Source of the DNA: Boswellia sacra
Taxonomy: Eukaryota > Streptophyta > Magnoliopsida > Sapindales > Burseraceae
Direction of reading: 5' to 3'
Assembly (NCBI GenBank): GCA_013180625.2
Contig: SNVD02013559.1
Location: forward strand, 434,001 to 498,000
DNA: 64,000 bases
Shown here piece after piece: positions 18,930 through 47,888 of the stretch (the stretch's first letter is position 1; each line of letters begins with the position of its first letter). The notes beneath the pieces were generated by a model, which was not told the DNA's origin, searched no databases, and saw nothing but the letters and a program-made list of their open reading frames with translations. A program made the position numbers and the translations under genes.

Positions 18930-19266
18930 AAAGATTATACAATAGTAGCACCAATATTATTACTTTGTTGAAGAAAGTATAAGCCTTTCATCAACTGTCC
19001 CTTTATAACAATGAGAGCACCTTTAACAACCTTTAAAACTCCATCTTGGGTTGAATACTTACAACCAAGTAAGTCAATAGTACTAAAGGATATAAGGTTT
19101 TTTGCTAAAGCTAGAACATGTAGCACATTGGTCAAGGTTCTAACAATATCATTGTGCATTTTGATTTGAACTATTCCAATTTGCACAAGTGGACAAGCAA
19201 GATTATTACCCATCAAAATAAAACCACTAGCCAACTAATAAGTGATAAACTAGTCTTTGTTTGGAC
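18930..19266 (-). pseudogene. pol: Copia protease / pre-integrase, left part of the split gene
   Basis: The minus strand reads MASGFILMGNN, then VQIKMHNDIVRTLTNVLHVL and LAKNLISFSTIDLLG with KVVKGALIVIKGQLMKGLYF. This is the end of the retropepsin domain and the start of the GAG-pre-integrase domain. At 19266 the frame stops at the border of Gypsy A. Its continuation, with the protease motif ILDLACSF (normally D-S-x), lies at 47889-47930. The active-site Ser is Leu and two Trp/Gln codons are stops. Confidence 0.85.
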
Positions 19267-20797
19267 TGACACATCCGAAAAAGGATTATCTCCTAAGTAT
19301 AGGAGTGTTGAAGTAATAAACCCGACAAGATTGGGGTCGATCCATGAGGAAGGGGATTTAGCAATACAAACTAAAGGATAAGAAATATGATATGAATAAT
19401 TCAAATAAATAACAAGATGATCTTAACAGATAAAAGTAAATATGGCAAGCGGTACAACCGACCATTCAAATGTAAAACAAAAACAAGAGGCGATAAAACC
19501 AACCATAGGAATAGGTGGTAAAGCCTACCATAACAAATGAAAGAACAAAAGAAAATAGAATAAAGAAATATACAAGTTGGAGGAATAAATACAACAACAA
19601 CGAAAGCTAAGGTTAAAGAATCCACCGTTGATATATCCGACAAGGATAAACAAACCAATTATAACTCAATTGCAATCCACACATCAAGGAGGTTCCAATC
19701 GGAAGATATGTCATTTAGACCCATTTTAGTTATATGAATCATATTTGTTTCATTACCAATATTTATACCACTTTTTATAAATAGATTCAAACATCCAATG
19801 TGTTAATCACCATATGTCTACAACAAATCAAGGTTCTTAAGTAGACTTATGTAGGTAAGGGAGAATCATACGATGTCTAGAAAGGATCCAAGCATTTGAT
19901 GTGTCAAGGATTGTCTACAATGGATCAAGACCTCCACTTTACGAGTGGTGTCAAAATTGATTAAGAAAATAAATATAAGACATATAAAATAAACAACAGA
20001 AGATTATGATTATTAAGCACATAGCAAAGGGTTAAGAAATCCTTGTTCTCATATTAAAGGTTTCACCTTTTCACTTTAGTAAGAGAGAATTTAGTGGAAC
20101 ATTATGCAAGAAAGAAAATAAATTGCAAGAACAAAATGATTTATTAATAATATTAAGAGAACAAAACACAAGAGCGAAGACACAATGTTAAGAGATCTCA
20201 ATCAAGAGTCAAGATGTCCTAATGGATGACAATTCACCTCTACTTATAGATACATTTAAGGGAAAACTTGTCAAATTACAAAGGGACAATTGTAAAATCT
20301 CTTGTTGATAATTCGATCATCATGTGCACTAATTTTGATCACCTGTTTTAACATCAAAATATTTAGAATTTTGATCATATGTCTTCATGAAATTTGTAGA
20401 TATTTCTCTTAACTTTCTAGAACATCTTGAATCATAGGTTTTCGATTTGTATTTCAAGAGATACGGTCAAAATATAGAGACATGCTCAGGCTAAGCTTGG
20501 GTTTGCTTTAAGCCCATTTTTCATCCATTAGACGCCCGAATTTCATGATCCTCGTGAAACACAATTTTGTAGGCAATTTAATCAGCTTTCCATCAAATCA
20601 AAATTGCACCATTCTGATCTATAAATAGAAAGTTATACTTATTCTACCAAACCTGCATCAAAAACTGAAATTAAGATGAAACTAATTCAGAAGATGCAAA
20701 AACTACAAATATGTTTAAGTCGAGGAATTTAATGACACTATTAGTGTAATACGATGACTTAAGGTCTTATTAATTATACACATTTAACTGTTCATCA
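19267..20797 (-). repeat. 3' LTR of Gypsy A
   Basis: It begins TGACACATCC (reverse of the LTR 3' end) and ends TTCATCA, like the other three LTRs of this family at 37717-39236, 43880-45407 and 46329-47883. The promoter TATA near 20240-20250 has changed (CTACTTATAG instead of CTATTTATAG). Next to it on the inside is a GT-rich polypurine tract on the minus strand (TTGGGGAGTG, 20799-20808). Confidence 0.92.
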
Positions 20798-22715: not shown

Positions 22716-23692
22716 GTCTACATAACTCTTTAATTATGTATGTAAAAATGAAGAATAAGAGATGTTTTATTTATGAAGTACAACAAGATATTGTAATGAT
22801 AACGCCTATATGGGTAGCTCGGCTGTTTATTGAAAAAGTTTGACAATAAGACATAGAAATTCAAAATTGGCAAAAATAAAAATTATAACATGCATGCGTA
22901 ATTCAAAAAATTCAAAAATGATAGCATAACATGAATATATACAGGTAGTTATGACTGTGGCTCACATTTTCCTTTGATTTTACATCTAGAAACGACTTAA
23001 ACACCTTCTATAAGTTGGGGATAGCTTCTCATCCATTTTTTTTATAAACTGGCAAACAAGTTGTTTTGAGTTAGATTCCTGAGACTGTATTGTTCATGCT
23101 TATATCTAAATTGGATCCATAGTTTCAAGATCTCATGTTGCACAATTCCACAAGGATACATCTCAAGAATCAATAAGACATTATCCAAAGACTTCCTGCT
23201 CAGGCCATCCTTGATGAATTGAAGCTTATCCTCTCTATTGTTAGACACAAATCCCAAACAGCAGCAACGCTGGTTACAAGTCCATCTTACACATTTATAG
23301 CAGACTTATAATCTTTTCACTCTTCATTTTTTGGCATAAGAGCTTCTTCCTAAACTTGGCATATGAGAAACAAAACCATCTGTAGATTCACAAGATAATC
23401 GAACCTTGGCTTCAATTAACTATCGTAAATCAATTGGAATACCTTTGAGCATCAACATCCTTAGTATTTCTGATGGTGCTTTGTAAATTTTAAGCAAATG
23501 ATTTTGAGAAATAGAGGGAAAACATGTTTTTAAATTTTAGAGAATGGTATCCATTTGAAAAGAGAAGGAGAGAAAAGAAAATGAATGCAAAATGAGTAAC
23601 AGTTTTTAGGAAACTAAAAAACCGACTTCAAAAGCCATAGAGTATTGGATTTGCCATTTGACCAGGAAAAATCGATTCTTAAAAAGGATTGA
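22716..23692 (-). other. Spacer between integrase and LOG in Gypsy A
   Basis: The reverse strand of this spacer matches 41430-41927 in Gypsy B. Shared strings include AAGTCGGTTTTTTAGTT near 23615 and 41450, and the reverse complement of ACGACTTAAACACCTTCTAT near 22992, which matches 41600-41625. A 71-codon frame at 23042-23257 has no recognisable domain. B lacks a counterpart to part of the middle, so B has a small additional difference here. Confidence 0.55.
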
Positions 23693-24880
23693 TTAAGGTA
23701 ATGGACTCTTCATTTTGATCAAAATTTTCAAAGAATGTTCTAACTGTTGTCCATTAACCTTAAAACTATTACCATTCTTCGGGTTCTCAATTTCAACAGC
23801 TCTATAGTGAAAAACATTTTTAACAACGAAAGTTCTAGTCCAATGAGACTGAAACTTACAAGGAAACAAATGCAATCTTGAATCATACAAAAGAACTTTT
23901 TGTGAAGGTTCAAAAGATTTTCTAACAATGCGTTTGTCATGGAAAATCTTCATTTTTTCTTTGTAGATCTTAAAATTATCATAAGCCTCACTCCTGATTT
24001 CTTCAAGTTCACTTAGTTCGAGTTTATGTAATTTGCAAGCATCATCCAAATTTTTGTTAAATGTTTTAATGGCCCAATAAGCTTTATGCTCAAGTTCTAT
24101 AGGCAAGTGACAATGTCTTCCATAAACTACTCTATAAGTAGACATACCCAGTGATGTTTTGAAAGCAGTTCAATAAGCCCGAAATGCATCATTAAATCTT
24201 AAATACCAATCTTTGCCATTTTTTCTAAAATTTGTTTTATCTTCCTATTTGCTAATTCAACTTGTCCACTTGTTTATGGGTGATAAGAGGTAGAAACTTT
24301 ATGGGTGATTTCTTATTTTTTAATTAAGGTTTCAAATGGTTTGTTACGAAAATGTGTCCCCCTATCACTAACAATGGCTTGAGGAATTCCAAATCGAGAC
24401 AAGATATTCTCTTTCAAGAATTTGAGAACTATTTTGTGATCATTGTTTTGACATGGAATTGCCTCGACCCGTTTTGAGACATAATCTACTGATATAAGAA
24501 TGTAAACAAAACCAAATGATGGTGGAAAAGGTCCTATAAAATTAATACCTCAACAGTAAAAAATTTCGACAACAAGAATGAGATCCAAAGGTACCATGTT
24601 TCGTTTTGAAATAGAACCAATTTTTGACAATTTTCACAAGTTTTGTAAAATGCATGTGCATCTTTAAATAAGGTGGGCCAATAAAATCCACATTGCAAGA
24701 TTTTTGCAGCCATTTTTCTTGATGAGAATGTCCCTCATATGCTTCAGAATGAAAAAAATGAATAACACTACTAACCTTATTGTCGGATATGCATCTTCTA
24801 AGTATTTAGTCAAGATAATATTTGAATAGATATGGATCATCTCAATAAAAAAATTTTACCTTGATCAAAAACTTCTTTTT
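23693..24880 (-). pseudogene. pol: Athila-type Gypsy integrase
   Basis: The C-terminal part (23693-24145) is an open frame reading [20 protein letters not shown], then [20 protein letters not shown] and [20 protein letters not shown], ending at [14 protein letters not shown]. This is very close to the family pattern of Athila integrases, which have no chromodomain. The core (about 24160-24560) and zinc-binding region (24560-24720) are recognisable only in pieces on the minus strand with frameshifts and stops. Confidence 0.82.
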
Positions 24881-24910: not shown

Positions 24911-26439
24911 TCATGTTGCAAGAAAATTAACAACAAACCAAGTCATTGTAGCAACAGAGAATAAAAATTCATTAGGAAAAGAGTCATTGATAGATGAGGT
25001 TTCAGTTGATGTCTCTGTTGTCAATCTTGATAGATGATCAGCAATGACATTTTTGACTTCTTTCTTATCCATTATTGTGATGTTAAATTCTTGGAGCAAT
25101 AAGATTCATTGTATCAATTTAGGTTTTACATCCTGTTTAGAATCAAATATCTCACAGCAGCATGGTTAATGTAAATATTAGTTGGGGAACTAATTAAATA
25201 AGATTGAAATTTGCCCAATGCGAATCCTATCGCATGTAGTTCTTTTTCAATTAAAGTGTAATTCATTTGCGCATCATTTAAAGTTCTACTTGAATAACAT
25301 ATCACATAAAGCTTCCCTTCTCTTCTTTGTCCTAAGACAGCACCAACAACATAATCGCTCGCATCACACATCAATTCAAAAGGCGAGGACTAAGCAGGAG
25401 ATTGCATAATTGGGGCAGTTCTTAAAGTCCAATTAACTTATCAAAAGCATTTTGATATTCTTGAGTCCATTCAAAACAAGTGTCTTTTATTAAGAGGTTA
25501 CAAAGAGATTTAGATATAGTACTGAAATTTTTGTATAAGCCTCCTATAAAATCCAGCATGCCCTAAAAATGAACAGACCTCTTTGACTATTTTCGGTGGA
25601 GGTAAACGGTAAATCAATTCCACTTTTGCTTTATCCACTACAATTCCCTTGGAAGACACCACTTAACCTAAGACAATTCTAGAAGTAACCATATAATGAA
25701 ATTGTTCCCAATTAAAAATAAGACTTTTTTCTTCACACCCTTTTAGGACTTTTTCTAAGCTTTTCAGATAATTATCAAAAGAATTTCCAAAGACAGTTAA
25801 ATCATCCATGAAAACTTCTGACCAATGCTCAACTATGTCACTAAAAATGCTTAACATTCATCTTTGAAAAGTAGCTAGAGCATTATGTAGTCGAGAAGGC
25901 ATCCTTCTAAAGGCAAAAATGTCAAAGGGACATGTGAATGTGATATTTTCTTGGTCTTCAAGTGCAATGGAAATTTGGTAATAGCTTGAGTAGCCATCAA
26001 GAAAGTAGTAGTAGGAATGCCCTGTTACTCTTTTTAAAATTTGGTCAATGAATGATAAGGAAAAATGGTCTTTTCTAGTGACAGTATTTAATTTTCTGTA
26101 GTCAATACACATCCTCCAACTAGATGAGATTTAGGTTGACAATGATTTACCCTTTTCATTTTTGACTATTGTAATGTCAGATTTCTTAGGTACTACTTGT
26201 TTAGGGCTTACCCACTTACTATCCAAAATAGGGTAGATAATTCCCACATCAAGTAATTTAAGAACTTCAGCCTTAATGTCCTTTTTCATATGTGAATTTA
26301 ATCTTCTTTGAGGTTGTTGGGATGCTTTGGCATTTTCTTCTAAATGTATTATATGTGTACAAATCAACGGGTTAATGTCTTTTATGTCTTTTAAAATCAA
26401 CCCAGTTGCATTTTTATGCCTTTTAAGTACTTCTATCAA
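24911..26439 (-). pseudogene. pol: Athila-type Gypsy reverse transcriptase and RNase H
   Basis: RT begins in 26131-26439 (LKLLDVGIIYPILDSKWVSP and QVVPKK). It continues in 25858-26112 with CIDYRKLNTVTRKDHFSL, HSYYYFLDGYSSYYQISIAL and ITFTCPFDIFAFRRMPSRLH, and in 25663-25857 with EVFMDDLTVFGNSFDNYL, so the M-D-D of the active site is intact. RNase H is at 25126-25374 (CDASDYVVGAVLGQRREGKL, then YTLIEKELHAIGFALGKFQS). Its end, with VIADHLSRL, is at 24911-25099. Frameshifts and stops separate all these pieces, so no functional polyprotein can be made. Confidence 0.9.
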
Positions 26440-26739
26440 CTTACCTTATTACTTACTTGTGAGAGATGAAGAAATTACCATCGGATACGTCTGTTTTTTC
26501 TCAAGATATGCATATTTTAGTCCTTCACGTAAAGGCTTCAGTTCTAACTTGGGAGTTTTCTCTTCCTTGCTTTCATCAAGTTGTCCCAATTCTTCAAATC
26601 GTGGTTTCAAGCCTTTATTTTCCATCACCTGTGTACAATCTAGTAAGGAACATATATTAGAAAGATCAAGCTCTAGTTACACACTTGATTCAAATGAATT
26701 GACTATATAAGTTTCCAAAGGGTTAGAAAAACTCCCTTT
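26440..26739 (-). pseudogene. Protease-RT linker of Gypsy A
   Basis: On the minus strand this encodes a Lys/Glu-rich linker with KGLKPRFEELGQLDESK and ELKPLREGLKYAYL, the usual stretch before Athila RT. The intact gag of Gypsy B ends with material related to this linker (41050-41170), which marks where B's pol deletion starts. Confidence 0.6.
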
Positions 26740-27120
26740 TTAGATATGGTCTTTCATAGTAGTTTCGATCATATTAACTTCTTCATTTTCATCCTCTTCT
26801 TCATGTGATTGTTTATACATATTAAAAACATTAAGCTCCATTGTTATATTCCCAAATGACAACTTCATGACTCTATTCTTGCAATTAATCAAAGCATTAG
26901 AAGTTGCTAAAAATAGACTCCTTAAAATGACAGGAATTGAATTACATACTTCTACCGGTTGTGTATCCAAGACGATAAAATCCATAGGATATATGAATTT
27001 ATCGACTTGAACTAACAAATCTTTAACCATTGCTCTTGGTACTTTAATTGACATATCAGCAAGCAAAAGAGTTATAGAAGTTGGTTTTAACTCACCTAGA
27101 TTGAGTTTTTGAAAATCTGA
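26740..27120 (-). pseudogene. pol: Athila protease, C-terminal part (cut by CACTA insertion)
   Basis: The open frame reads SDFQKLNLGELKPTSITLLL, then ADMSIKVPRAMVKDLLVQVD and FIYPMDFIVLD with IPVILRSLFLATSNALINCK. This follows the family pattern after the active site in Athila retropepsins. It starts exactly at the CACTA border at 27120. The missing N-terminal part with the D-L-G-A-S active site is on the other side of the CACTA element at 36614-36700. Confidence 0.87.
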
Positions 27121-33000: not shown

Positions 33001-33601
33001 TTATCTTTTATGCTTCATAATATGAAGAAGGAATTTTGACTTCATCAGGAAAGGCCTTCTTCAAAAATTCTAGTAACTTTGCCACTGATTTGTCGGTCCA
33101 TCCGTGCAACATCTTCAATTGCAAAAGTTGAACAGTAAATGATAGGGAGGTAAAATTTACACAACCCGGATACAAGGGACACTCTGCTTGTTCAAGTAGC
33201 TTAAGATATGTTTCAGTTTCACTATCTACCGGGCAACTACTACCTTCACCTGAATCATTATTCGGAATCCCCATGGCCTCACATATCATTCCAACCATAT
33301 CATCACCCCTTGTAGAATCACAACCAACCTCAAAATGTTGGTTAGGCTGGTCAGACTCTATAGTTGTATATTGTTCACCATGTAACGTCCACCTCTTGTA
33401 TGTTCTTAAAAACCCATTAAATATTAAATGCTCCCTAGCTGTGTATCTATCCATAAGATATCGATTGTGACATTTCTTACATGGACATAATATTCTATTG
33501 TCATTCATCAAATTGCCAAAGGCAAAATTTAGAAATCCCTCCACCCCAGTGAAATATGCTCGACAACATCGATTTGGTAAATCAATCCAACTCTTATCCA
33601 T
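30019..33601 (-). pseudogene. CACTA transposase (TNP2/TNPD type), nearly complete with nonsense codons
   Basis: The start MDKSWIDLPNRCCRAYFTGV is typical of the Transpos_assoc domain. Then come the Transposase_21 (TNP2) domain (FTYKTWDACPNNCMLFRGEL, SSKTASLMRWHAEHRIKDGV, DGFNPFRTMSIAHSTWPIVL), DUF4218 (HNLIRHNLDVMHIEKNVCDN, LPIHLAEEASLAGPVQFRWM) and DUF4216 (VLTDIIQIRYVNDMTFILFK) at the C-terminus. Exons are about 31349-33601, 31000-31257, 30794-30893 and 30019-30720, ending in an acidic tail. Lesions are a TAA for Lys after SSYYEA (33008-33010), a stop after GFDIKQ (about 32102) and a mutated first donor near 31345. The enzyme would cut both ends of the element for cut-and-paste transposition. 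Confidence 0.9.
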
Positions 33602-36479
33602 GAGAATTTTCCTTAAAAGTAATAACAACAATATTTACATCAATATAAATTTATTCATGCACAAGGGAATAAATATAATATGAAACCTAGTTGCAAACAT
33701 TTATCTAAAAGGTGGGTGGTCCTATCCCATTCAAGAATGCATAAGTTTGTACTATAAAGTAGTAGTCACAAATTGCTCCATCTCTAAAGAAAATTCAGCA
33801 GCGTTTCCCTATAGTTCTCCAAGTACACATAGATATAGATGATTGAATTCACGTGTCATTTCGATGTTCGAAAATCCACACAAAATAGACAATCATCTAT
33901 TATGTACTTAGAGAACATGAGGAAATGTTACCAAATTTTCTGATAAGATGGAACAAAACATGACCAACTAATTTACAATACAAACTTATGCATGCTCGAA
34001 CTATCCGAATCTGGACAATTCAAGAATCATTAGTAGACATACACTCTTCGTTGTCATCTTTGGATGAAAATGAAGAAAAATTATATGTCAAATAATAATT
34101 CTTGAACGGGATCTAAGCTTATATGCATGAATGACAATTGAATATAATCATGTTAATAAACTTTTCAACGAACATAAAAAAACGTAATATTCATAACAAA
34201 GTACAGAATCGGGACCCATACTTTATGTGAAATAACTTGTGGCACCTTCTTGTTTGGGCTCTATTAGTTTGTGGTAACTACAATGCCCACCTAGAAGGCT
34301 ACATATTAATTTGGGATAATGAAAACCTATCAGTTTACAAGTTGTTGGGTTGGTTTATATTGTTATTTAGTGGGCTGGTTTGCTATATACTGTCAATTTT
34401 TAATGGGTTGCTTTTGACCAGTTTGGGGTAGGTGTGGGATGGTTTAAATGGGTTGTTATGTCATTCTTTGATTAAGTGTGGGCTGGTAGGCCTTCTTGGC
34501 AAAGTGTGGTAGGCCTTCTAAATCTTTTATTAGCATATCTAAATGTGTAAATGTGTATTAGGTGGAACAAATTTTAAATACCTTATTGATGTGGAAGAAC
34601 TTTTATTAGCATGAAAAGAAAGATACAATAGTTTTAAATGTAATAAATCTTTACCATCTTTACCATTAAGTCAAGTTTATCTGGAGTTCAAATTAATTTG
34701 AAGTATTCAGAAGTATGGTTACGATAACGAACAATTTTGAAATCTTATCTCAATTAGTTAAAGACCTCTGTGAGGAATAATATGCAACACACATACAAAT
34801 TCTTATCACTAGTGATTTGACAATTATATTAACTTGGCATCTAAATATGGCATAATCTGATAATTAATGTGGCAATCCTATAAAGTGCAACATACAAGAT
34901 TTGATCTTATCTCAACATACAGGATTTGAGATAGAGACTTTGAATATTTAATTAATTACATGCTCCTTATATTTATGCTATAAAACAAACTCTTGTTTGA
35001 TCTCCATAAGTTTTTAACAATTATTTATTAGGATCTGAGCAAATCTTTTCTAACTTTGATCTTTTGTGACAAAATCTGATGGGCTTTGATTGTGGCCATA
35101 ACTTGTGTTATATATATAGTGGTACTAATAATAGCCTGTAGTTTATAATTTATTTGCTTGTCTATCATATCACTTTCAAAAGGGGTACAGTTGGGAAATA
35201 TATGAGATTATATATTTTTTGATAGGAAGGAAATATAAATGACAGTATTTAGTAATACTTAAATACAATCTTTTTATTTTTTAAATTTGGGCTGGCAGCC
35301 CAGCCATCAGCTAGCTTCATCGGTGCCTTGGCTATTGTAAGATGCTTGTTATGAGCTAACCTTAGAGCTTTTCTAGAAAGCAGTCACTCTTTTCCATTTA
35401 TTTTTGATAAGAAACTTTTCAAATTGTATCAGAATAAAATAGCTATACAAGGTATAACAAGCATTCCACTAAAGAAGGACTAGCCTGAGAGGGCATAGAA
35501 CTTTACAAAATGATACATTAATAAGCCATATAAAGTTAGTTAACCAAGAACTAGGCAGAGGCACCCAAAATCACGAGTAGTAACCCAATACTGCCTCCAA
35601 AAATTTCACCATGTCTTGATATCTATTTAATAGTTGCACAAAAATATCGATGTATGATGATAAAAGAATGATGAATTACAAAGTTCAACTAGAAATATAA
35701 AATCACACACCAATCCACAATGTCTATTGCAAATCTATGATTTCCCAAAGAAAATTAATGGAAGTCGATCACACAAAAATCATCATGGAAACGCAAACAG
35801 CAACAACAAGCCATGGAAACGCAATAGCAAACGCAAACAAAAACAAGTCATGGAAACACAATAGCAAACGCAGACAAGATATAGTACCAGTTCAGAAGTC
35901 AATCACGAGAGTTCTAGGAGCAGCTCGATGCAGAAAGCACACTCCTTGTCTGCACTCTTTCTCACTCTCCTCAACCACGAGTCACAAGCCCACAATCCTT
36001 CTTCTGCCATTGGGAAAGGAACATCTCTCAAGTGTTATGATCCTCCATTGCTGCTCGGACTAAGGAAGAAAGTAGATAGATATAGTAGCTCACCAGTAGT
36101 AAAGCGGAAGAAAGCAGGCAAACTACATCAGCACATTTCCCTCGCCACAATCTTCGTCGACTCGGTTGAAGTAGCTCACCAGTAGCAAAGCGGAAGAAAG
36201 CGAAAGATAGATATGTGCCTCGACGATCCCTTATGGGTTTGGCAAACTCAGCAGAGGAGTGGTGGAGTTAGAATTGGCTTGGCGGAGAAAATGGAAATCC
36301 AAAACAAGGAAGCTTGGCACGACCAATTCCCGCAATTCCCGCAATTCCCGCAATTATTTAGAAAATAATTTGATGAGAAATGAGAGGGAATACAAGAATT
36401 TGATGAGAGGGCGAAAACGGGAGAGAGATGAGAGGGAGATCGAAATAATTTCACGCAATTCCCGCTCTTAGGGCAAAAT
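33602..36479. other. 5' non-coding region of the CACTA element
   Basis: Nearly 2.9 kb between the right subterminal repeats and the TNP2 start. It holds no recognisable domain. There is a local duplication, CTCACCAGTAGTAAAGCGG at about 36091 and CTCACCAGTAGCAAAGCGG at about 36176, and a 9-base microsatellite at 36324-36354. The stretch 35780-36200 is less AT-rich and could contain untranslated exons of the transposase transcript. Confidence 0.4.
36324..36354. repeat. 9-bp tandem repeat (AATTCCCGC)n
   Basis: Three full units and a partial one of AATTCCCGC, with another isolated copy near 36458. Confidence 0.9.
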
Positions 36480-36613: not shown

Positions 36614-37716
36614 TGAATATGGAAGTAAATTCATACTAGCACAAGATCAATTAAAGCATTTTCGACTTTATAATCTCCAATAATGCATGAAATTGTAGAA
36701 CAACCAGGATCCTTATATTTCACAGAATTACTATTATGAAGAATAGCACTTACTTGTTCAGCTAAAAAGCCTTCTTTTTTTACATTCAATTTTCTTTTCA
36801 CAGTACACAAATCTTTCAAAATTTTTCCATAAGAAGGTACCTGTTTAATCACATCTAGCAAGGGAATATTGACCTTTACCTAGTTGAAAATTTCATAAAT
36901 TTTAGAATTGTGGTTTGGCTTCTTATGAGTGGTTAATGCTTGAGGGAATGCAAGCATAGGTGGGGATTTGGTTTCCACTTTGCTATGTTGGTTTTGTAAC
37001 CTCTTCCTTACCCTTAAAGATCGATTCATCTTTTTTCTCATAAGGTTTAAGAATGTATTTTTCAACAACCTTACCATTGTGAAGGGTCATGACTGATTTA
37101 GATTGGTCCACATAATGGCTATTTGAACTGCTTGCACTTGAATTAGATTGATCTGTGGGGCTCTGCAATGTTTGAGAAGGGAATTTCTCTTCTTCTTGGA
37201 TACTAAATGTAGATGCAAATTTTGCAAGAGTGTCTATCAAATTTGCTAATGTTTGAGCAGTTTAACTATTAAAGGTCTCTTGCTTTGCAATGAATGAATG
37301 CAATGTTTCTTCAAGATCTTTCCTAGAGGAGAGACCTATGATGCATGATCATGAGCATTTTAAAAATTTCGACGTGTTTCAAAAGGACTTGTGAAGATTG
37401 TGCATGATTGTCATTTTTGAACTAAAATTCGGATGATTTCTCCAACTGCGATTATAGTTTTGTGAGTATGGACTGTGATTTAGCATTTTGAAAGCGTTTA
37501 AGGCATTGGCTTGTCCATGGAGACATTCCCTGAAAGTAGGCAAAGTTGGACAATAATCGATAGAATGATCATTCGCATTACAAATATGGCAGCAAATTTC
37601 TTGAATGGACTTCATTTCTAAAGCCTTAGCTTTTCTAGCTAGATATGCATATTTGGCTAGAAAGTCATGGTCTTCCCTAAGGTTATAAATGCCTCTATTG
37701 GATGTCGAGGGTGGGG
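36614..37716 (-). pseudogene. gag: Gypsy A gag C-terminus and protease N-terminus
   Basis: From right to left on the minus strand: SNRGIYNLREDHDFLAKYAY and CCHICNANDHSIDYC, a CX2CX4HX4C zinc knuckle (about 37545-37610); then MTLHNGKVVEKYILKPYEKK and DESIFKGKEEVTKP; then the protease beginning VKYKDPGCSTISCIIGDYKV ENALIDL. At the active site one base is missing, so D-L-G-A-S becomes D-L-V-L-V and a stop. The frame ends at the CACTA border (36614) on one side and at the Gypsy B border (37716) on the other. The rest of gag continues at 45408. Confidence 0.85.
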
Positions 37717-39236
37717 TGATGAACACTTAAATATGCATGTTTAATAAGAGTTTAGTTCATCATATTGCATTAATAGTGTCATTAAATTTCTCAACTTAAG
37801 CATATTTGTAGCATTTGCATCTTTGGAATTAATTCCTCTTAATTTTGGTTTTGTTATAGGTTTGGTAAAATGAGCATAACTCTCTATTTATAGATCAAAT
37901 GGTGCAATTCTTAATGTTTTGGAAAGATGATTCAATTGTCTACAAGATTGCATTTCACAAGAATCATCAAATTCGGGCTCTTAGTGGACCAAAATTGGGC
38001 TTGAAGTGAACCCATCTACAGTCTCGGCCCAGTCTGACCAGGCCTCAGTATTTGGACCGTATCTCTCAAAATACGTATCCAAATTGTGCAAATCAATATG
38101 TTATAGAAAGTTGAGAGAAATATCTACAACTTTCATGAAGACATGTGATTAAAATTCACAACATTTCGATGTCAAAATTGATGGTCAAAGTCGGTGCCTA
38201 ATGATCCCAATTGTCAAAGATATTTACAACTAATATTTGACAATTATGCCCTTGTAATTTGACAAGTTTGCCCCTGGATGTATCTATAAATAGAGGTGCC
38301 TTGTGACCCATTAGGGCATCTTGACCTTGGCTGGAACATTTTGGCTTTGGCTAGGATCTTGTATTGTGTGTTTATGTTATTAATGAATTTCCTTTTTCTT
38401 GCATTTTATTTTCTTTCTATTATAATGTTCTTCTAATTTCTCTTTTGCTAAGGTGAAAGGGTGAAACCCTTGATATGAGAATAAGGATTCTCTAACCCTT
38501 AATATGTGCTTAATAATCTTAATCTTATAATGTTTATTCAATATGATTTATATTTAATTTCTTAATCAATCTTGACACCACTCGTAAAGTGGAGGTCTTG
38601 ATCCATTGTCGACAATCCTTGGCACATCAAATGCTTGGATCCTTTCTAGATGATGTATGGTTCTTCCTTACCGACACGAATCTAGTTAGGAACCTTGATT
38701 TGTTGTAGACATATGGTGATTGGCACATTGGATGCTTGAACCCATTTACAAGAAGTGGTATAAATATTGGTAATGAAACAAATATAATTCATATAACTAA
38801 AATGGGTTAATTATCCTTATTTGAAATATCAAGGGCGGATCCCCTAACCTTAGCCTTCATTGTTATTGTGTTAATTCCTCTTGTATTTTAATTATTCTAT
38901 TGTTTATGAACTTTTTATTTTATTTACTATGGTAGGTTCTACCACCTTATGAAATTGTTCTTTAATTTACTATGGTTGGTTATACCACCTATTTCCATGG
39001 ATGGTTTTACCTCCTCTTGCTTTTTGTTTTATATTTGAATGGTCGGTAATACCGCCTACCATCTTACATATTTATTGATATTATCTTGTCATTTCTTTGA
39101 ATCATCCATATCACATTTGTTTATCTTATAATTTGTAACGCTTAAATTCCCTTCCTCGTGGATCGACCCCGGTCTTACCGGGTTTATTACTTCGACACTC
39201 CTATACTTGGGAGACAATCCTTTTTCGGATGTGTCA
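37717..39236 (+). repeat. 5' LTR of Gypsy B
   Basis: It starts TGATGAACAC and ends GGATGTGTCA, with a 1520-base length. It contains a TATA box at 38285-38293. The near identity with the 3' LTR dates this insertion as the most recent event visible in the window. Confidence 0.95.
38285..38293 (+). promoter_or_regulatory. TATA box of the Gypsy B LTR promoter
   Basis: TATAAATAG in the context ATGTATCTATAAATAGAGG. It is conserved in the 3' LTR (44449-44457) and, reversed, in Gypsy A's 5' LTR (about 47312-47320). Transcription would start about 30 bases downstream and run through gag and LOG. Confidence 0.7.
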
Positions 39237-39240
39237 AGTT

Positions 39241-39258
39241 TTTGGCGCCGTTGCCGGG
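39241..39258 (+). other. Primer binding site of Gypsy B
   Basis: TTTGGCGCCGTTGCCGGG, four bases after the LTR, is the primer binding site sequence usual for Athila/Tat elements, attributed to tRNA-Asp. Gypsy A has a mutated version with three changes (46307-46324). Confidence 0.88.
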
Positions 39259-39472
39259 GAAGGTAAAGTTTGGCGTACAAAATTGTAAGTACGTTCTTTT
39301 CCCATTTCTATTTTTATTTTTCTTGCATATGTTCATCTCTTCTCTCCCCATTTCTATTTTTATTTTTTCTTGCTTGTGTTCATATTTTCTTTCTCTTTGC
39401 ATAAGTTGGTAGAATTGTTAGGAGTCACTCATCTTCTTTAAAAAACATGCTCAAACCCAACTGAGAACATAA

Positions 39473-41317: not shown

Positions 41318-41927
41318 TTTTTGCTATCATTTCTAGTTTGTTTTTATTTTATTTTGTGTGTGTTTATTTTAGTTGTGTGTTTATTTTAGTTGTGTGTTTT
41401 TATTTTGTTTTTCGGTCAAGTGGCAGATATGGTACTCCATAGCTTTTAAAGTCGGTTTTTTAGTTCCCCAAAAACTGTTGCTCACCTTGCATTCATTTTC
41501 TTTTCTTCTCTCTCATTTTCTTCATAGTATTGGGAATCTGACTCAAAATGACCCTGTTTGCCAGTTTATAAGAAAACTAGATAGGAAGCATATCCCCAAC
41601 TCATAGAAGGTGTTTAAGCCGTTTCTGGACGTAAAACCAGAGGAAGATGTGAGTCACAATCACAACTACCTGTACATATGCATGTGTGCCATCATTTTTG
41701 AATTTTAATGCCTTATAGCTGTCATTTTTGAATTTGTATCTTTTGCTTGACTTATGGTGTCTTATTTCATCATCTTTTTTTTTTTAATTTCTATGCATTA
41801 TTGTCATATTTTTCAAAAAGCAACCGAGCTACCTATTTAGATGTCATCATTAGCATACCTTTTTGCACTCCATGAATACCACATCTATTGTTCTCTTCTT
41901 CACACATAGTTAGAGAGTTGCATAGAC
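41318..41927 (+). other. Pol-deletion scar and LOG 5' region of Gypsy B
   Basis: There is no protease core, RT, RNase H or integrase between gag and LOG. The stretch from about 41430 matches the sequence downstream of integrase in Gypsy A (reverse of about 23640 and lower). T-rich sequence and TTCTTCACACATAG (41896-41909) lie just before the LOG start and resemble a polypyrimidine tract with a 3' splice site. Confidence 0.65.
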
Positions 41928-42578
41928 ATGGAGGGAACCTCAAAACGTCGAATCCAAAGGATATATGTATTCTGTGGATCTCGACCGGGTAAAAGTGAGG
42001 AGTTTGTAGAAGTAGCAAATTACCTTGGTAGGCTACTGGCTGAAAGAAAGATTCATGTGGTTTATGGGGGAGGTAGCCTCGGGTTAATGGGTTGCGTATC
42101 AACAGCTGCACATGTAGGAGGTAGTCAAGTGTTAGGAGTTATTCCTAAAGCTTTGGCTGTAGAAAGCATTGTTGGAAAAACGGTTGGGAAGGAGTTACAG
42201 GTCTCATCTATGCATGAACGCATGGCACATATGCTCATCAATTCAGATGCCTTTATTGCTTTACCAGGTGGCTTTGGTACTTTTGAAGAAATTTTTCAAA
42301 TTGCCTCTTGGGCCCAACTGAACCTCCATCAAAAACCCATAGGTTTGTTGAATGTTAACAATTTCTTTGATCCTTTAATAAGTTTTGTTGATGCAGCTGT
42401 AGAACAAAATTTTATCCCACATTGGGCGAGACAGATCCTTATTTCTGCCAATTCTGCTGGTGAGTTACTTGACAAATTACAAGCAGTAAAGTACGAACCT
42501 GACCCAGCTAGTACTCAAATTAATTGGGCAGGAGAGCAAAACAAAAAGTGCAAATTGGATCTGAATCTCCGTTTGTAA
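41928..42578 (+). CDS. LOG-family cytokinin riboside 5'-monophosphate phosphoribohydrolase, intact and intronless, inside Gypsy B
   Basis: The 216-residue protein has the full LOG layout: an N-terminal strand with IYVFCGSRPG, the Rossmann-type loop YGGGSLGLMG (about residues 46-55), LGVIPKAL, the MHER motif with its conserved Arg, and PGGFGTFEE (PGGxGTxxE) with its conserved Glu, followed by ASWAQLNLHQKPIGLLNV. Length matches plant LOG proteins (about 210-230). Plant LOG enzymes release active cytokinin bases from nucleotides in the cytosol; activity here is inferred. Plant LOG genes normally have several introns, and this copy has none, which indicates capture as cDNA. It lies downstream of gag in the same orientation, with no own promoter recognised. 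A decayed copy in the same position occurs in Gypsy A. C-terminal residues after about 190 (KKCKLDLNLRL) differ from typical LOGs. Confidence 0.93.
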   Translation: MEGTSKRRIQRIYVFCGSRPGKSEEFVEVANYLGRLLAERKIHVVYGGGSLGLMGCVSTAAHVGGSQVLGVIPKALAVESIVGKTVGKELQVSSMHERMAHMLINSDAFIALPGGFGTFEEIFQIASWAQLNLHQKPIGLLNVNNFFDPLISFVDAAVEQNFIPHWARQILISANSAGELLDKLQAVKYEPDPASTQINWAGEQNKKCKLDLNLRL

Positions 42579-43867
42579 TGTTTTCTTGTGCTTTATTTTA
42601 TTTTATGAGTCTTTCAGGTCATCTCTCTTTAATAACAGAAGCTTCAGGTAATGTCTCCTATACTTTATCTCTTTATGTTTAAACATTGAGGACAATGTTT
42701 CATTTAGTTGGGGGGGAAGGATAGTAGACATAAGTGTGTCTTGAATTTTCTTTTTTCTTGAAAAAAAAAAAGCGAGTTAGTAATTAGATTCAGAGTGCGG
42801 TGTAAGGAGTTCAAATCCTCTTGAGACGCATTCTGGGTCAGGAATGGCAGAGTAGGGAGGGCCAGTTTGAACTCTTGAAACCCATTCTAACCAATTTGTC
42901 ATTTTATTCTTGCATTTGTGAACTCACTTAGCTAACTTGATATTATTTAGTCTTGATTTTTGAATTTTATAACAAAGAGGTCTTATTCATTTCACTTTGA
43001 ATTATTCAAATCTATGAACTCTCACAACCTTATCATTTAAAAATTGTGTGCTTATGTACTCATTAAGCAAGTATTCATGAACCTTTCTTCACACACACAC
43101 ACATACCTTGATGCATGATTGTGGATGGTAAAATGAAATATTGTAATATTGAGTTCTTTTGTTTTGTTTAGGATAACAACACAAAGGAAGGGGAAAGTTA
43201 AAAAAAAAAAAAAAAAGTGAAAAAAAAAGAAGAGAGCAATTGTGGATAAGTTTGGTCTCGTAGCCTCCTTAATTCGAGCAATTAAGCCCGATGGGTGCCT
43301 CAACACCTAATACCCTAAGACCAACTGGTTTGGGAGCTATTGGCCTAAAGCTCACTACATGGATTAAGGAGAAAACTTAATGGGATTGAACATTGCACTA
43401 TCCACAAATTTCTAAGAAAAAATAAAGCATCGGCAACCCGAGTCGTTAAGCTCGAAGGGCTGTCTTAACACCTAATGCCCTAAGGCCAACTGGTCTGGGA
43501 GTCATTAGCCTAAGGCTCGCTACATGGGTTAAAGATGCATTCCTTCAAAAAAAAAAAGAGAAAAAAAAATATATATATATATAAAATGAATAAATGCCCC
43601 TTACCTAAGGTTGTTAGCCTTAACAAATATTAGAACCAATATGACTTCTTTCTAATAAGCCCCATAATCATGTGTCGACTGAGCACAAAAAGAAGGTTTA
43701 TTGATATCTTGACTGAAGGGTACATGAGTCATAAAAAAAAAAATCGGTTGAGAGTTTGTTTATTTGGATAAAATCAAGGAGAGTGCAATAATGACCACCT
43801 TGATGTAAAATTCTATAAATCACTTCTAAATAATAACGCTTTAATTGCTAGGGACTAGCAATAAGCT
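42579..43867 (+). other. 3' non-coding region of Gypsy B with paired ~170-bp repeat
   Basis: Two units lie at about 43262-43430 and 43431-43530. They share CACCTAATACCCTAAG / CACCTAATGCCCTAAG, CCAACTGGTTTGGGAG / CCAACTGGTCTGGGAG and AAAGCTCACTACATGG / AAGGCTCGCTACATGG. Both are also in Gypsy A. A-rich runs lie at 43199-43216 and 43548-43570 with a short TA run next to the latter. No further coding region is seen. Confidence 0.7.
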
Positions 43868-43879
43868 AGTTGGGGGGTG
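43868..43879 (+). other. Polypurine tract of Gypsy B
   Basis: AGTTGGGGGGTG directly before the 3' LTR start at 43880, in the position where plus-strand DNA synthesis is primed. The same sequence, slightly changed, adjoins the 3' LTR of Gypsy A. Confidence 0.8.
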
Positions 43880-45407
43880 TGATGAACACTTAAATATGCA
43901 TGTTTAATAAGAGTTTAGTTCATCATATTGCATTAATAGTGTCATTAAATTCCTCAACTTAAGCATATTTGTAGCATTTGCATCTTTGGAATTAATTCCT
44001 CTTAATTTTGGTTTTGTTATAGGTTTAGTAAAATGGGCATAACTCTCTATTTATAGATCAGAATGGTACAATTCTTAATGTTTTGGAAAGCTGATTCAAT
44101 TTTATACAAGATTTGATTTCACAAGAATCATCAAATTCGGGCTCTTAATGGACCAAAATTGGGCTTGAAGTGAACCCATCTACAGTCTCGGCCCAGTCTG
44201 ACCAGGCCTCAGTATTTGGACCATATCTCTCAAAATACGTATCCAAATTGTGCAAATCAATATGTTCTAGAAAGCTGAGAGAAATATATACAACTTTCAT
44301 GAAGACATGTGATTAAAATTCTCAACATTTCAATGTCAAAATTGATGGTCAAAGTCGGTGCCTAATGATCCCAATTGTCAAAGATATTTACAACTAATAT
44401 TTGACAATTATGCCCTTGTAATTTGACAAGTTTGCCCCTGGATGTATCTATAAATAGAGGTGCCTTGTGACCCATTAGGGCATCTTGGCCTTGGCTGGAA
44501 CATTTTGGCTTTGGCTAGGATCTTGTATTGTGTTTTGTGTGTTTATGTTATTAATGAATTTCCTTTTTCTTGCATTTTATTTTCTTTCTATTATAATGTT
44601 CTTCTAATTTCTCTTTTGCTAAGGTGAAAGGGTGAAACCCTTGATATGAGAATAAGGATTCTCTAACCCTTAATATGTGCTTAATAATCTTAATCTTATA
44701 ATGTTTATTCAATATGATTTATATTTAATTTCTTAATCAATCTTGACACCACTCGTAAAGTGGAGGTCTTGATCCATTGTCGACAATCCTTGGCACATCA
44801 AATGCTTGGATCCTTTGTAGATGATGTATGGTTCTTCCTTACCGACACGAATCTAGTTAGGAACCTTGATTTGTTGTAGACATATGATGATTGGCACATT
44901 GGATGCTTGAACCCATTTACAAGAAGTGGTATAAATATTGGTAATGAAACAAATATAATTCATATAACTAAAATGGGTTAATTATCCTTATTTGAAATAT
45001 CAAGGGCGGATCCCCTAACCTTAGCCTTCATTGTTATTGTGTTAATTCCTCTTGTATTTTAATTATTCTATTGTTTATGAACTTTTTATTTTATTTACTA
45101 TGGTAGGTTCTACCACCTTATGAAATTGTTCTTTAATTTACTATGGTTGGTTATACCACCTATTTCCATGGATGGTTTTACCTCCTCTTGCTTTTTGTTT
45201 TATATTTGAATGGTCGGTAATACCGCCTACCATCTTACATATTATTGATATTATCTTGTCACCTCTTCGAATCATCCATATCACATTTGCTTATCTTATA
45301 ATTTGTAACGCTAAAATCCCCTTCCTCGTGGATCGACCCCGATCTCACCGGGTTTTATTACTTCGACACTCCTATACTTGGGAGACAATCCTTTTTCGGA
45401 TGTGTCA
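43880..45407 (+). repeat. 3' LTR of Gypsy B
   Basis: 1528 bases, the same TGATGAACAC...GTGTCA boundaries as the 5' LTR, with few substitutions and small indels. Sequence of Gypsy A gag resumes at 45408 after the TGGGG duplication. Confidence 0.95.
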
Positions 45408-46306
45408 TGGGGATTTGCTTGGTACCTCATAGGTGCCAGAAGTGTTCCAATTTTAGGCTTTTTCAAGTAGTAGGTCTAGATAGTCGATTGCTTCCTCTGA
45501 ATCTTTATCTCCAAATTGCCCGTTGCACATTAGTACTACTAATTGCCTATCTTGAGGTGTCAACCCTTCATAGAAATGTGAAACTAACCTCCAAGTTTCA
45601 AAACCATGGCGGGGATAGGTATTAAGTAATTCTTTATACCTATCCCGACATTGGTAAAAGGTCTCTCCTTGTTTTTGAGTGAAAGTGGTGATTTGCCTTT
45701 TAAGAGAATTTGTCCGATGGGAAGGGAAAGTTTTTGTTCAAAAATTATTATTGAATCTCCTCCCATGAACTAATAAAAGTTGACCTCAATTTTTGTAGCC
45801 ATGTTCTAGCTTTATCTTTTAGAGAAAAGAGAAAAAACTTTAATCTAATAGTGTTTATCAATAATTTCGGTCACTATAGGAGTTACAAACTTCTTTAAAG
45901 GTTTTTACGTGTGAATATGAGTTTTCCGTATCATGGCCATGAAAGGTGGATAAAAGTTGAATGAAACTCGATTTGAAGTTGAGATGGATTGCATCAAGGG
46001 GAAAAACTAAACAAGATTGTGCACTAGTTCTCACCGGATTCTTGTAGTCCCTAAGGGTTCTTAGTTGATTTTGGTCATTTTGTTGGGAATGATTATCCCC
46101 TTCTTTTGTGAGTCTCTCAACTTGATTGTTGGCTATTTTTTCTAAGGCGGACGATGTTTTTTTGACTAGTCTATTGCTAGATGTGTGTGACCAAATTCAT
46201 GCAATTTTAAAAGAGAAAAGGAGAAGAAAAGATGAATACACAACAAAAAAATGAATATCTAAATGGGAAAAGAGAAATTTACAATTTGTACTCCGAATTT
46301 TATCTT
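45408..46306 (-). pseudogene. gag: Gypsy A gag, N-terminal part
   Basis: On the minus strand: LRTLRDYKNPVRTSAQSCLV, then FPLDAIHLNFKSSFIQLLST, corresponding to the start of B's gag. Further left it gives broken pieces of the capsid domain, down to NWNTSGTYEVPSKSP at 45408-45460, which matches the NWNNVGTYEVP of Gypsy B's gag. Stops and frameshifts occur near 45560, 45770 and 45860. It continues on the other side of Gypsy B at 37716. Confidence 0.82.
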
Positions 46307-46328: not shown

Positions 46329-47883
46329 TGACACATCCAAAAAAGGATTATCTACCAAGTATTGCAGTGTCGAAGTAATAAACCTAGTAAGACCGGGGTC
46401 GATCCACGCGAAAGGGGATTTAGTGGTACAAACTAAAGGATGAGAAATATGATATGAATAATTCAAATAAATAAAAAGATGATATTAATAAATAAAAGTA
46501 AAGATGGTAGGTGGTACAATCGACCATTCAAATGTAAAACAAAAATAAGAGGTGATAAAACCGACCATGGGAATAGGTGGTAAAACCTACCATAGCAAAT
46601 GAAAGTACAATTTCATAAGCAAGAAACAAGAATAAATGAAATACACAAGTAATAAGAATTAACACAATAATAATGAAAGCTAAGTTTAGGGGAACTGCCC
46701 TTGATATATCAAAGAAGGATAAACAACCTAATTATAACTCAATTGGAATCCACACATCAAGGAGGTTTCAATCGGAAGGTATGTCATTTACGCCAATTTT
46801 AGTTATATGAATTATATTTGTTTCATTACCAATATTTATACCACTTCTTATAAATGGGTTCAACATCCAATGTGTCAATCACCATATGTCTACAACAAAT
46901 CAAGGTTCCTAACTAAACTCATGTCGATAAGGAAGAACCATACGACATCTAGAAAGGATCCAAGCATTTGATATGCCAATGATTGTCTACAATGGATCAA
47001 GACCTCCACTTTACGAGTGGTGTCAAGATTGATTAAGAAAATAAATATAAGACATATAAAATAAACAACATAAGATTATGATTATTATGCACATATTAAA
47101 GGGTTAAAAAATCCTTATTCTCATATTAAGGGTTTCACCCTTTCATCTTAGTAAGGGAGAATTTAGTGGAACATTATGCAAGAAAGAAAATAAATTGCAA
47201 GAAGAAAATGATTTATTAATAATATTAAGAGAACGAAACACAAGAGAGAAAATACCATGTTCAGAGATCTCAGTCAAGAGCCAAGATGCCCTATTAGGTC
47301 ACAATTCACCTCTATTTATAGATAAATTTAAGGGTAAACTTGTCAAATTACAAAAAGACAATTGTAAAATATCTTGTTGATAATTTGGATCATCATATGC
47401 ACTGACTTTGGCCACTGATTTCAGTACCATAATATTTAGTATTTTGATCACATGTCTTCATGAAAGTTGTGGATATTTCTCTCAGCTTTCTAGAACACCT
47501 TGAATCATATGATTTGCATTCATTTTTCAAGAAATACGATCAAAATATAGAGACATGGTTAGGCTGGGCCGAAACTGTAGATGGGTTTGCTTCAAGCCCA
47601 TTTTTGGTCCATTAGATGCCCGAATTTCATGATCCTTCTGCAATACAATTTTGTAGGTAGTTTAATCAGCTTTACACAAAATTAAGATTTTCACCATTCT
47701 AATCTATAAATCGGAAGTTATGCCCATTTTACTAAACCTGCATCAAAAAATAAAATTAAGATGAAACTAATTTAGAAGATGCATAAAACTACAAATATGC
47801 TTAAGTCGAGGAATTTAATAACAGTATTAGTGTAATATGATGAATTAAGCTCCTATTAAACATACACATTTAAGTGTTCATCA
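46329..47883 (-). repeat. 5' LTR of Gypsy A
   Basis: It starts TGACACATCC on the plus strand and ends GTTCATCA at 47883, directly followed by the TGGAC duplication. It is visibly more diverged from A's 3' LTR than B's two LTRs are from each other, so A is older than B, as the nesting requires. Confidence 0.92.
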
Positions 47884-47888
47884 TGGAC

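What the first reader, a model, noticed from the sequence alone, without database searches (positions are those of the whole stretch)
41928..42578. Intact, intronless LOG (cytokinin-activating enzyme family) gene carried inside a young LTR retrotransposon
The ORF has all visible LOG motifs (YGGGSLGLMG, MHER, PGGFGTFEE) and full length. It lies within the exact boundaries of Gypsy B (LTRs plus TGGGG duplications) between gag and the polypurine tract, in sense orientation. Host LOG genes have introns, so this is a captured cDNA. A transposon that ships a hormone-activating enzyme could alter cell division or meristem activity in the tissue where it is transcribed, which would be an unusual form of element-host interaction. 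Structure is seen directly; function and benefit to the element are inference.
Basis: partly seen in the sequence, partly recalled or inferred. Interest (0 to 1): 0.95.

Follow-up and report, generated by a model that had tools for sequence, protein, structure and literature searches.

The report
LOG gene kept by plant retrotransposons
A jumping gene in this plant carries a full-length copy of a hormone-enzyme gene that is not a stray passenger: its element families carry it in many copies and selection seems to keep it while they multiply, although its substrate pocket has changed, so its job may no longer be making the hormone.

Summary
Confirmed, with a twist. Window 41928-42578 is an intact, intronless 216-aa LOG-family ORF in a complete young LTR element (B: TSD TGGGG, LTR K2P 0.018). 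The older pol-bearing element A carries a decayed LOG in the same place. In the 638.6-Mb genome the capped list of 150 scored matches is near full-length throughout; a second family has a 70%-identical LOG; a 26-mer just upstream of LOG occurs 7,383 times. Fuller elements read LTR-gag-pol-NABP-LOG-LTR (NABP: carlavirus-type ORF); B is a pol-less derivative. In 41 copies, variants private to one copy look near neutral (omega-like 0.90) and shared ones constrained (0.17; pol 0.13); family C repeats this (0.79, 0.20). So selection keeps LOG while elements propagate, not after landing. Catalytic Arg/Glu remain, but the adenine/prenyl-pocket Lys is Met/Ile in 66 of 66 copies and the Glu is Gln in 64 of 66; a C-terminal LxLxL tail is added. 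'Ships a cytokinin-activating enzyme' is only partly supported; an altered substrate is at least as likely. LOG (YgdH) domains in Citrus/Populus Gypsy elements are in print, so this is a new variant of a known kind.

The parts
37712..37716 (.). target-site duplication TGGGG, 5' side of element B
   Evidence: sequence
37717..39236 (+). 5' LTR of element B (TG...CA)
   Evidence: K2P 0.018 to the 3' LTR
39243..39259 (+). primer-binding-site-like TGGCGCCGTTGCCGGGG (complement of a tRNA-Asp 3' end by recall)
   Evidence: sequence; the same stretch follows the 5' LTR in L013, L027, L028
39473..41317 (+). gag ORF, 614 aa
   Evidence: Pfam Retrotrans_gag PF03732 9.4e-18
41524..41606 (+). 3' remnant of the NABP-like ORF (last codons and TAG)
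   Evidence: 95% over 80 bp to the NABP ORF of L009; TAG read from sequence
41607..41690 (+). segment between NABP stop and LOG, nearly identical between two diverged element families; holds the 26-mer counted 7,383 times in the genome
41928..42578 (+). LOG-family ORF, 216 aa, intact, intronless, ends KCKLDLNLRL
43866..43879 (+). G-rich tract 5' of the 3' LTR (polypurine-tract position)
   Evidence: sequence
43880..45407 (+). 3' LTR of element B
45408..45412 (.). target-site duplication TGGGG, 3' side of element B, inside A's gag
46329..47883 (-). 5' LTR of element A (TSD GTCCA at 47884-47888)
25112..27087 (-). element A protease-RT-RNase H region, 85.5% to the PR-RT stretch of L014
   Evidence: RT and RNase H domains of the L014 stretch:
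23682..24556 (-). element A integrase region, 86% to L023
   Evidence: domain of the L023 stretch:
23013..23554 (-). element A NABP-like region, 82% to L009
22068..22715 (-). element A LOG copy, decayed (stops, indels)
19267..20797 (-). 3' LTR of element A (TSD GTCCA at 19262-19266)

Best explanation
Element B is a recent, pol-less (gag + LOG) member of an abundant Ty3/Gypsy lineage whose fuller members read LTR-gag-pol-NABP-LOG-LTR. The LOG ORF is a standing accessory gene, present before the A/B and B/C families split, and kept because element lineages with an intact LOG leave more copies. It works for the element in the cell where the element is transcribed and stops mattering once a copy has landed. 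SHOWN: structure, repeated occurrence in the genome, no introns where host LOG loci have them, near-neutral copy-private versus constrained shared variation, conserved catalytic residues, changed pocket residues, added tail. INFERRED: capture from a host LOG, once, as an RNA copy; benefit to the element; and that the protein is a LOG-fold nucleotide 5'-monophosphate phosphoribohydrolase with a remodelled base pocket. My odds: altered or broadened substrate about 0.5; still mainly activating cytokinin ribotides (raising cell division or permissiveness where the element is expressed) about 0.35; acting mainly by its basic + LxLxL tail, for instance by docking a TOPLESS-type corepressor, or another non-enzymatic role, about 0.15.
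For: Intact ORF and exact element. Decayed LOG at the same place in A; codon-position differences 47/210, 27/209, 54/210, pos 2 vs 3 p=0.0012. Own genome: 150 scored matches (capped) near full length, 124 without a stop; AtLOG3 query: 150 scored (capped), one-frame matches of about 180 or more of 200 residues, 143 without a stop. 41 LOG copies: singletons 30 syn/90 nonsyn, omega-like 0.90 [0.63-1.46]; shared 48/27, 0.17 [0.10-0.27], p=9e-8; pol in 10 copies 0.71 / 0.13. Family C, 25 copies: 0.79 / 0.20, p=2.7e-6; B vs C dN 0.245, dS 1.33. Singletons even over codon positions (44/35/41; 56/45/53), shared piled on the third (14/13/48; 19/9/47). Host LOG loci exon-split. Tree: element-type LOGs split from LOG1/3/8-type host LOGs, support 100. 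Pocket: K100 is M in 41/41 and I in 25/25, E125 is Q in 40/41 and 24/25, catalytic R 41/41 and 24/25, E 41/41 and 24/25; listed AtLOG3-type proteins 120/120 K and E. LxLxL tail 40/41, 25/25 and 101/120 versus 0/120.
Against: B-family copies were picked by similarity to LOG, which favours intact ones. Transversion-only counts keep the direction but are small (42 N:11 S single, 13 N:8 S shared); in the 36 stop-free copies they no longer differ clearly (0.87 vs 0.72). Of 134 element-type matches found by their last 62 codons, only 51 have an open frame of 216 or more (counted). Some database relatives have lost a catalytic residue (Arg in 5, Glu in 2 of 120), and His97 is kept in only 67 of 120. 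No expression or enzyme data. Host LOG5/7 classes are missing from the tree, so the donor is not identified. The lineage name Athila was not tested with an RT tree.
Confidence: 0.85

Rival explanations
1. Cytokinin shipping: the element LOG is an ordinary cytokinin riboside 5'-monophosphate phosphoribohydrolase that raises active cytokinin in cells where the element is transcribed, favouring division and germline or meristem entry.
For: LOG fold and nearest solved relatives AtLOG3/AtLOG8; catalytic Arg/Glu and PGGxGTxxE kept; strong constraint on shared variants.
Against: The Lys that contacts adenine/prenyl is Met/Ile/Leu and the Glu of the prenyl site Gln/His in 115 and 112 of 120 listed database relatives and in 66 and 64 of 66 own-genome copies, while both stand in 120 of 120 listed AtLOG3-type proteins and in the Pseudomonas and Bacillus relatives aligned. 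In the Corynebacterium LOG, alanine changes at the AMP-binding and catalytic residues lose almost all activity (PMC4979012 section 6; the figure with the single mutants was not seen). A Met or Ile there could still work: not tested.
Confidence: 0.35
2. Passenger cDNA: LOG was transduced by chance and hitch-hikes without function; copies are intact only because they are young.
For: Singleton variants are near neutral; B and the five other LTR pairs measured are young, K2P 0.007-0.030.
Against: Shared variants have omega-like 0.17-0.20 in two families, B vs C dN/dS is about 0.18 at high dS, and pol-less B kept LOG.
Confidence: 0.05
3. Host-level benefit: the plant has domesticated element LOGs as extra LOG genes.
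For: Very many open LOG frames in the genome.
Against: Copy-private (singleton) changes show no third-position excess in either family and omega-like values near 1; host-type LOG loci with introns still exist. A few domesticated copies among many would not be seen by these tests.
Confidence: 0.05

Closest known systems
LTR-retrotransposon consensuses with a YgdH (LOG) domain in Citrus sinensis, C. clementina and Populus trichocarpa (PMC9289625, citing Steinbauerova et al. 2011)
   Same: Gypsy-type elements with a LOG-family domain in rosids; very probably the same lineage (inference)
   Different: That paper gives them two sentences, without ORF anatomy, selection test, copy number, pol-less forms, NABP partner, pocket changes or tail (sections 12 and 17 read; supplements not seen). 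Steinbauerova 2011 was not seen.
Phalaenopsis Gypsy elements with an AlkB m6A demethylase ORF (PMC9289625)
   Same: Gypsy element keeping a host-type enzyme as an extra ORF
   Different: Other enzyme; there the activity was shown in vitro, here it was not tested
Plant LOG cytokinin-activating enzymes (AtLOG3 2a33, AtLOG8 1ydh)
   Same: Fold, PGGxGTxxE, catalytic Arg and Glu
   Different: Intronless, element-borne, pocket Lys and Glu replaced, LxLxL tail added
TR-GAG / non-autonomous gag-only LTR elements (recalled; seen only in search listings)
   Same: LTRs, gag, no pol match, as in B, L013, L024, L027, L028
   Different: They also carry LOG; the L relatives also carry NABP
Carlavirus-type NABP / cysteine-rich proteins (PF05515, PF01623)
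   Same: The ORF between integrase and LOG in L023 passes both Pfam cut-offs
   Different: It sits in a retroelement; its role there is untested

Membership tests
LOG / TIGR00730 family (by descent) | Pfam PF03641 and TIGR00730 above curated cut-off | tested here: met
   131.9 bits vs 27; 164.9 vs 96.35
LOG / TIGR00730 family (by descent) | LOG fold and PGGxGTxxE motif | tested here: met
   AlphaFold model pLDDT 84.7, best PDB match 2a33_B TM(target) 0.94; motif PGGFGTFEE in B
Functional cytokinin riboside 5'-monophosphate phosphoribohydrolase | catalytic Arg (R99) and Glu (E122), CgLOG numbering | tested here: met
   41 of 41 B-family copies for both; C family 24 of 25 for each; database relatives 115 and 118 of 120
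Functional cytokinin riboside 5'-monophosphate phosphoribohydrolase | adenine/prenyl-pocket Lys (K100) and Glu (E125) | tested here: not met
   M 41/41, I 25/25; Q 40/41 and 24/25; listed AtLOG3-type proteins 120/120 K and E
Functional cytokinin riboside 5'-monophosphate phosphoribohydrolase | score above NCBIfam equivalog NF058542 cut-off | tested here: inconclusive
   106.6 bits vs 300, but AtLOG3-type P0166 also scores only 132.4
Functional cytokinin riboside 5'-monophosphate phosphoribohydrolase | activity on iPRMP/tZRMP | not testable with these tools
   needs protein
Ty3/Gypsy LTR retrotransposon (Athila-like) | LTRs with TG..CA, 5-bp TSD, gag, and in relatives RT-RNaseH followed by integrase | tested here: met
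   order RT before integrase read from positions in A
Ty3/Gypsy LTR retrotransposon (Athila-like) | lineage Athila by RT phylogeny | not tested
   name rests on recalled RT/INT motifs and a recalled tRNA-Asp-type PBS
Non-autonomous gag-only (TR-GAG-type) element | gag kept, no pol between the LTRs | tested here: met
   B: no integrase match and only a weak 113-bp match to PR-RT; L013, L024, L027, L028 no match to the L014 PR-RT stretch
Viral NABP (PF05515/PF01623) | Pfam gathering score | tested here: met
   32.6 vs 23 and 28.9 vs 20.9 bits for the ORF of L023; in B only a remnant
EAR-motif protein | LxLxL motif, here LDLNLRL at the C-terminus | tested here: met
   40/41, 25/25, 101/120 vs 0/120 listed AtLOG3-type proteins; corepressor binding not testable here

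The most novel reading that the evidence does not exclude
Retrotransposons have turned a cytokinin enzyme into something else: an element-clade LOG with a rebuilt base pocket and an added basic + LxLxL tail, kept by selection beside a carlavirus-type nucleic-acid-binding protein. The two would form a virus-like accessory cassette, one protein handling RNA or silencing and the other acting on a modified nucleotide and/or a nuclear corepressor, which helps the element replicate and spreads between autonomous and pol-less elements.
Probability: 0.35. Interest if true: 0.92.

Novelty: new variant of a known kind. Interest (0 to 1): 0.78.

Why it matters
It gives a direct test, repeated in two families, that a host-type hormone-pathway gene works for a transposable element: constraint on what the elements pass on, none clearly seen on the landed copy. 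A marker next to LOG is present 7,383 times in a 639-Mb genome, so a large reservoir of LOG-derived ORFs, easily misannotated as host 'LOG' genes (such as LOGL10-named Populus proteins with the same pocket and tail), sits in plant genomes. If the altered pocket means a new substrate, it points to a nucleotide or nuclear pathway that controls retrotransposition.

Tried and rejected
Rejected: single-copy accident or chance insertion; passenger cDNA and host domestication as main explanations (see rivals). Led nowhere: viral-contig scan found nothing; gag singleton/shared comparison is uninformative (7 rows of mixed families, 0.54/0.51); NCBIfam equivalog cut-off does not discriminate; find_trnas found none in the window. 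Not obtained: a genome-wide count of the LOG core itself, an equal-length RT control for intactness, and the pocket exons of most host LOG loci: the Lys is seen in L056, L057 (alike in the matched exons) and L059; the matches in L055 and L058 show no such exon. A TAG read-through reading of the segment after NABP was considered; its codon pattern gave no clear support (by eye).

Rows dropped before counts: L062 (358 of 660 bases missing) from family C, leaving 25 of 26; five of 15 pol-matching loci with under 60% coverage; L019 (cut by its contig end) has no NABP match. L035 lacks the last 3 bases of LOG. NABP constraint is weaker evidence: p=0.04 in 19 copies, p=0.07 in the ten copies that also have pol. 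The tree used 59 chosen sequences, not all hits, and leaves out the Xanthoceras proteins with doubled LOG parts.

Full report
CHECK. Window 41928-42578 (+) is an ATG-to-TAA ORF of 216 codons with Pfam PF03641 at 2.2e-38 and closest solved relatives At2g37210 (2a33) and At5g11950 (1ydh), known as AtLOG3 and AtLOG8 (names by recall). An AlphaFold model (pLDDT 84.7; residues 1-5, 202-212 and 214-216 under 50, so the C-terminal tail is loose) matches 2a33 with TM(target) 0.94. The ORF lies inside a complete LTR element B: TSD TGGGG at 37712-37716 and 45408-45412, LTRs 37717-39236 and 43880-45407, K2P 0.018. At a recalled plant rate of 1.3e-8 per site per year that is roughly 0.7 million years (inference).

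NEIGHBOUR A. On the minus strand lies an older element A with TSD GTCCA and LTR pair K2P 0.151; A-B LTR K2P is 0.196-0.228. B is inserted in A's gag. A's parts read 5' LTR, gag, PR-RT, integrase, NABP-like region, LOG, 3' LTR. A's LOG (22715-22068) has stops and indels. Differences between the two LOGs fall 47/210, 27/209 and 54/210 on codon positions 1, 2, 3 (positions 2 vs 3 p=0.0012), as expected if constraint acted before A landed.

GENOME. The window is part of a 638.6-Mb, 7,431-contig plant assembly (host not named). With B's LOG as query, the 150 scored matches cover at least 214 of 216 residues at 92-100% identity, the window copy included; 124 have no stop (capped list out of 14,416 loose first-look candidates). 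With AtLOG3 as query, the 150 scored matches each run in one frame over about 180 or more of 200 residues at 53-58% identity, 143 without a stop (capped). The six fetched ones (L049-L054) belong to a second family C with NABP upstream and a LOG 70-73% identical to B's in DNA; the other 144 were not placed in a family then. With only the last 64 residues of AtLOG3 as query, 16 of 150 scored matches look like host exons (69-88% identity, ending at query residue 47-56) and 134 are element-type (46-53%, ending at 61-62); 51 of these 134 have an open frame of 216 aa or more. Host loci L055-L059 are exon-split. A 26-mer from the segment between NABP and LOG, up to 2 mismatches, occurs 3,702 + 3,681 = 7,383 times; the backward-read control pattern 0 times. 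This counts that segment, not LOG itself.

ANATOMY OF RELATIVES. Twenty regions around LOG copies were fetched (L009-L028, 4.3-9.8 kb, chosen for LOG). NABP matches in 19 of 20, the PR-RT stretch in 15 of 20. L013, L024, L027 and L028 have gag, NABP and LOG but no PR-RT match, like B but with NABP kept (with a stop and gaps in L028). Many pol frames are interrupted: of ten copies with enough PR-RT, six have stops and several have insertions. The open frames of L014 and L023 carry RVT_1 with RNase H, and rve; the L023 ORF between integrase and LOG passes the Pfam cut-offs for Viral_NABP (PF05515) and Carla_C4 (PF01623). A Citrus sinensis protein has Carla_C4 with gag and RNase H domains, and an Acer yangbiense gene model joins a gag part to a LOG part, so such combinations are not private to this plant. 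LTR and LOG are 94-98% like B's (apart from LTR pieces) and NABP mostly 93-99% like L009's in gag-only and gag-pol copies alike, whereas gag is about 69-77% between the types and 88-94% within the gag-only type: the 3' cassette seems to be exchanged between lineages (inference). Five LTR pairs have K2P 0.007-0.030; direct 5-bp repeats (TAAAG, ATTAA, AAAGT, GTGGT) stand at L013, L027, L028 and L017.

SELECTION. For 41 LOG copies (B and L009-L048), variants seen in one copy (mostly after insertion) are 30 synonymous / 90 nonsynonymous, omega-like 0.90 [0.63-1.46]; variants shared by two or more copies (mostly arisen while elements multiplied) are 48/27, 0.17 [0.10-0.27]; Fisher p=9e-8; pooled pairwise dN/dS 0.21. 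In the same analysis pol (10 copies) gives 0.71 [0.53-0.96] and 0.13 [0.07-0.20], LOG in those same ten copies 0.82 and 0.07, NABP (19 copies) 0.75 and 0.32 [0.16-0.60], p=0.04 (p=0.07 in the ten). Family C (25 copies) gives 0.79 [0.56-1.14] and 0.20 [0.12-0.31], p=2.7e-6; B versus C gives dN 0.245 and dS 1.33, with differences 56/40/102 by codon position. Singletons are spread evenly over codon positions (44/35/41; 56/45/53) and shared variants pile on the third (14/13/48; 19/9/47). This is what selection on the propagating lineage, and little or none on the landed copy, predicts; LOG is constrained about as much as the element's own PR-RT region. Caveats: the B-family copies were ranked by LOG similarity; transversion-only counts point the same way but are small, and in the 36 stop-free copies no longer differ clearly (0.87 vs 0.72). 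The family C sample was chosen by the last 62 codons (20 loci, one of them dropped) or by AtLOG3 similarity (6).

WHAT THE PROTEIN MAY DO. In the Corynebacterium LOG, Arg99 and Glu122 are the proposed catalytic pair, Met96/Lys100/Glu121 hold the adenine, and Met96/His97/Lys100/Glu125/Trp129 seem to form the prenyl site; alanine changes at the AMP-binding and catalytic residues nearly abolish activity, Ser19 excepted (PMC4979012, section 6 and passages; figure not seen). In the element copies the catalytic Arg is present in 41/41 (B) and 24/25 (C), the Glu in 41/41 and 24/25. The Lys is Met in 41/41 and Ile in 25/25; in 115 of the 120 listed database relatives it is Met, Ile or Leu (Lys in 4). 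The Glu is Gln in 40/41 and 24/25, and Gln or His in 112 of 120. Among those 120, Arg is lost in 5, the catalytic Glu in 2, and His97 is kept in 67. All 120 listed AtLOG3-type proteins keep Lys, Glu, Arg and catalytic Glu, and the Pseudomonas and Bacillus relatives aligned have the Lys and Glu125 too. The element clade also ends in a basic stretch plus LxLxL (B: KCKLDLNLRL): 40/41, 25/25 and 101/120, against 0/120 AtLOG3-type proteins. LxLxL is an EAR consensus, and extended LxLxLxL forms are mostly C-terminal (PMC9956375, abstract start and passages). So a phosphoribohydrolase with a changed base pocket, possibly nuclear, is my first choice (0.5), plain cytokinin activation second (0.35). Neither activity nor expression was tested.

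TREE. In a 59-sequence ML tree the element-type LOGs (B and C families, Reevesia, Diplodiscus, Pterospermum, Populus including one named LOGL10, Melia and unnamed proteins) are parted from LOG1/3/8-type host LOGs by a branch of 0.79 substitutions per site with support 100; many nodes inside the element side are weakly supported. LOG5/7 host classes are missing, so the donor is unknown. That the Reevesia, Diplodiscus and Pterospermum proteins are element-borne is inferred from their many near-copies per genome, not shown.

KNOWN OR NEW. PMC9289625 reports, in two sentences, a YgdH (LOG) domain in Gypsy-type consensuses of two Citrus species and, without a filter, Populus trichocarpa, in line with Steinbauerova et al. 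2011 (the 2011 paper was not seen). The review of additional ORFs (PMC7264820, parts 1 and 2 of 3 read) does not mention LOG there, and the Retand paper (PMC11963269) has no 'cytokinin' or 'lysine' in its main text. The searches listed no paper whose title or abstract start describes selection on, or anatomy of, such elements; some lists showed only the first 20 of more papers (28, 3,643, 29, 42 and 125), and only openly licensed PMC papers are covered. Hence 'new variant of a known kind': the kind is known, while selection evidence, abundance, the pol-less form, NABP pairing, pocket change and tail are new as far as these searches go.

Noticed in passing
L009 4737-5282 (oriented); window 23013-23554 (-) in A: Carlavirus-type nucleic-acid-binding ORF (PF05515/PF01623, scored in L023) as a second accessory gene of the element family, with weaker evidence of constraint (shared omega-like 0.32 in 19 copies, p=0.04).
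   Followed up: partly
window 41607-41690: About 85 nt after the NABP stop are nearly identical between families whose LOGs are 70-73% identical; holds GTGAG[T/C], and the frame after the TAG stays open for 20 or more codons in B. Splice donor, read-through or other RNA signal unknown.
   Followed up: partly
L017, L011: Young LTR-flanked copies (K2P 0.007 and 0.030) without the PBS-like site after the 5' LTR and without a gag match inside, but with NABP and LOG.
   Followed up: no
P0124: A protein filed under Pseudomonas protegens is a gag/integrase-type protein like plant retroelements, probably contamination of that record.
   Followed up: no
window 30019-33631 (-): ORFs that look like a CACTA-type transposase region (by eye), lying within the span of element A.
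   Followed up: no
P0045, P0075, P0103: Populus proteins named LOGL10 have Leu and His at the two pocket places and the LxLxL tail; probably element-borne genes named as host LOGs. P0075 also lacks Glu121.
   Followed up: partly
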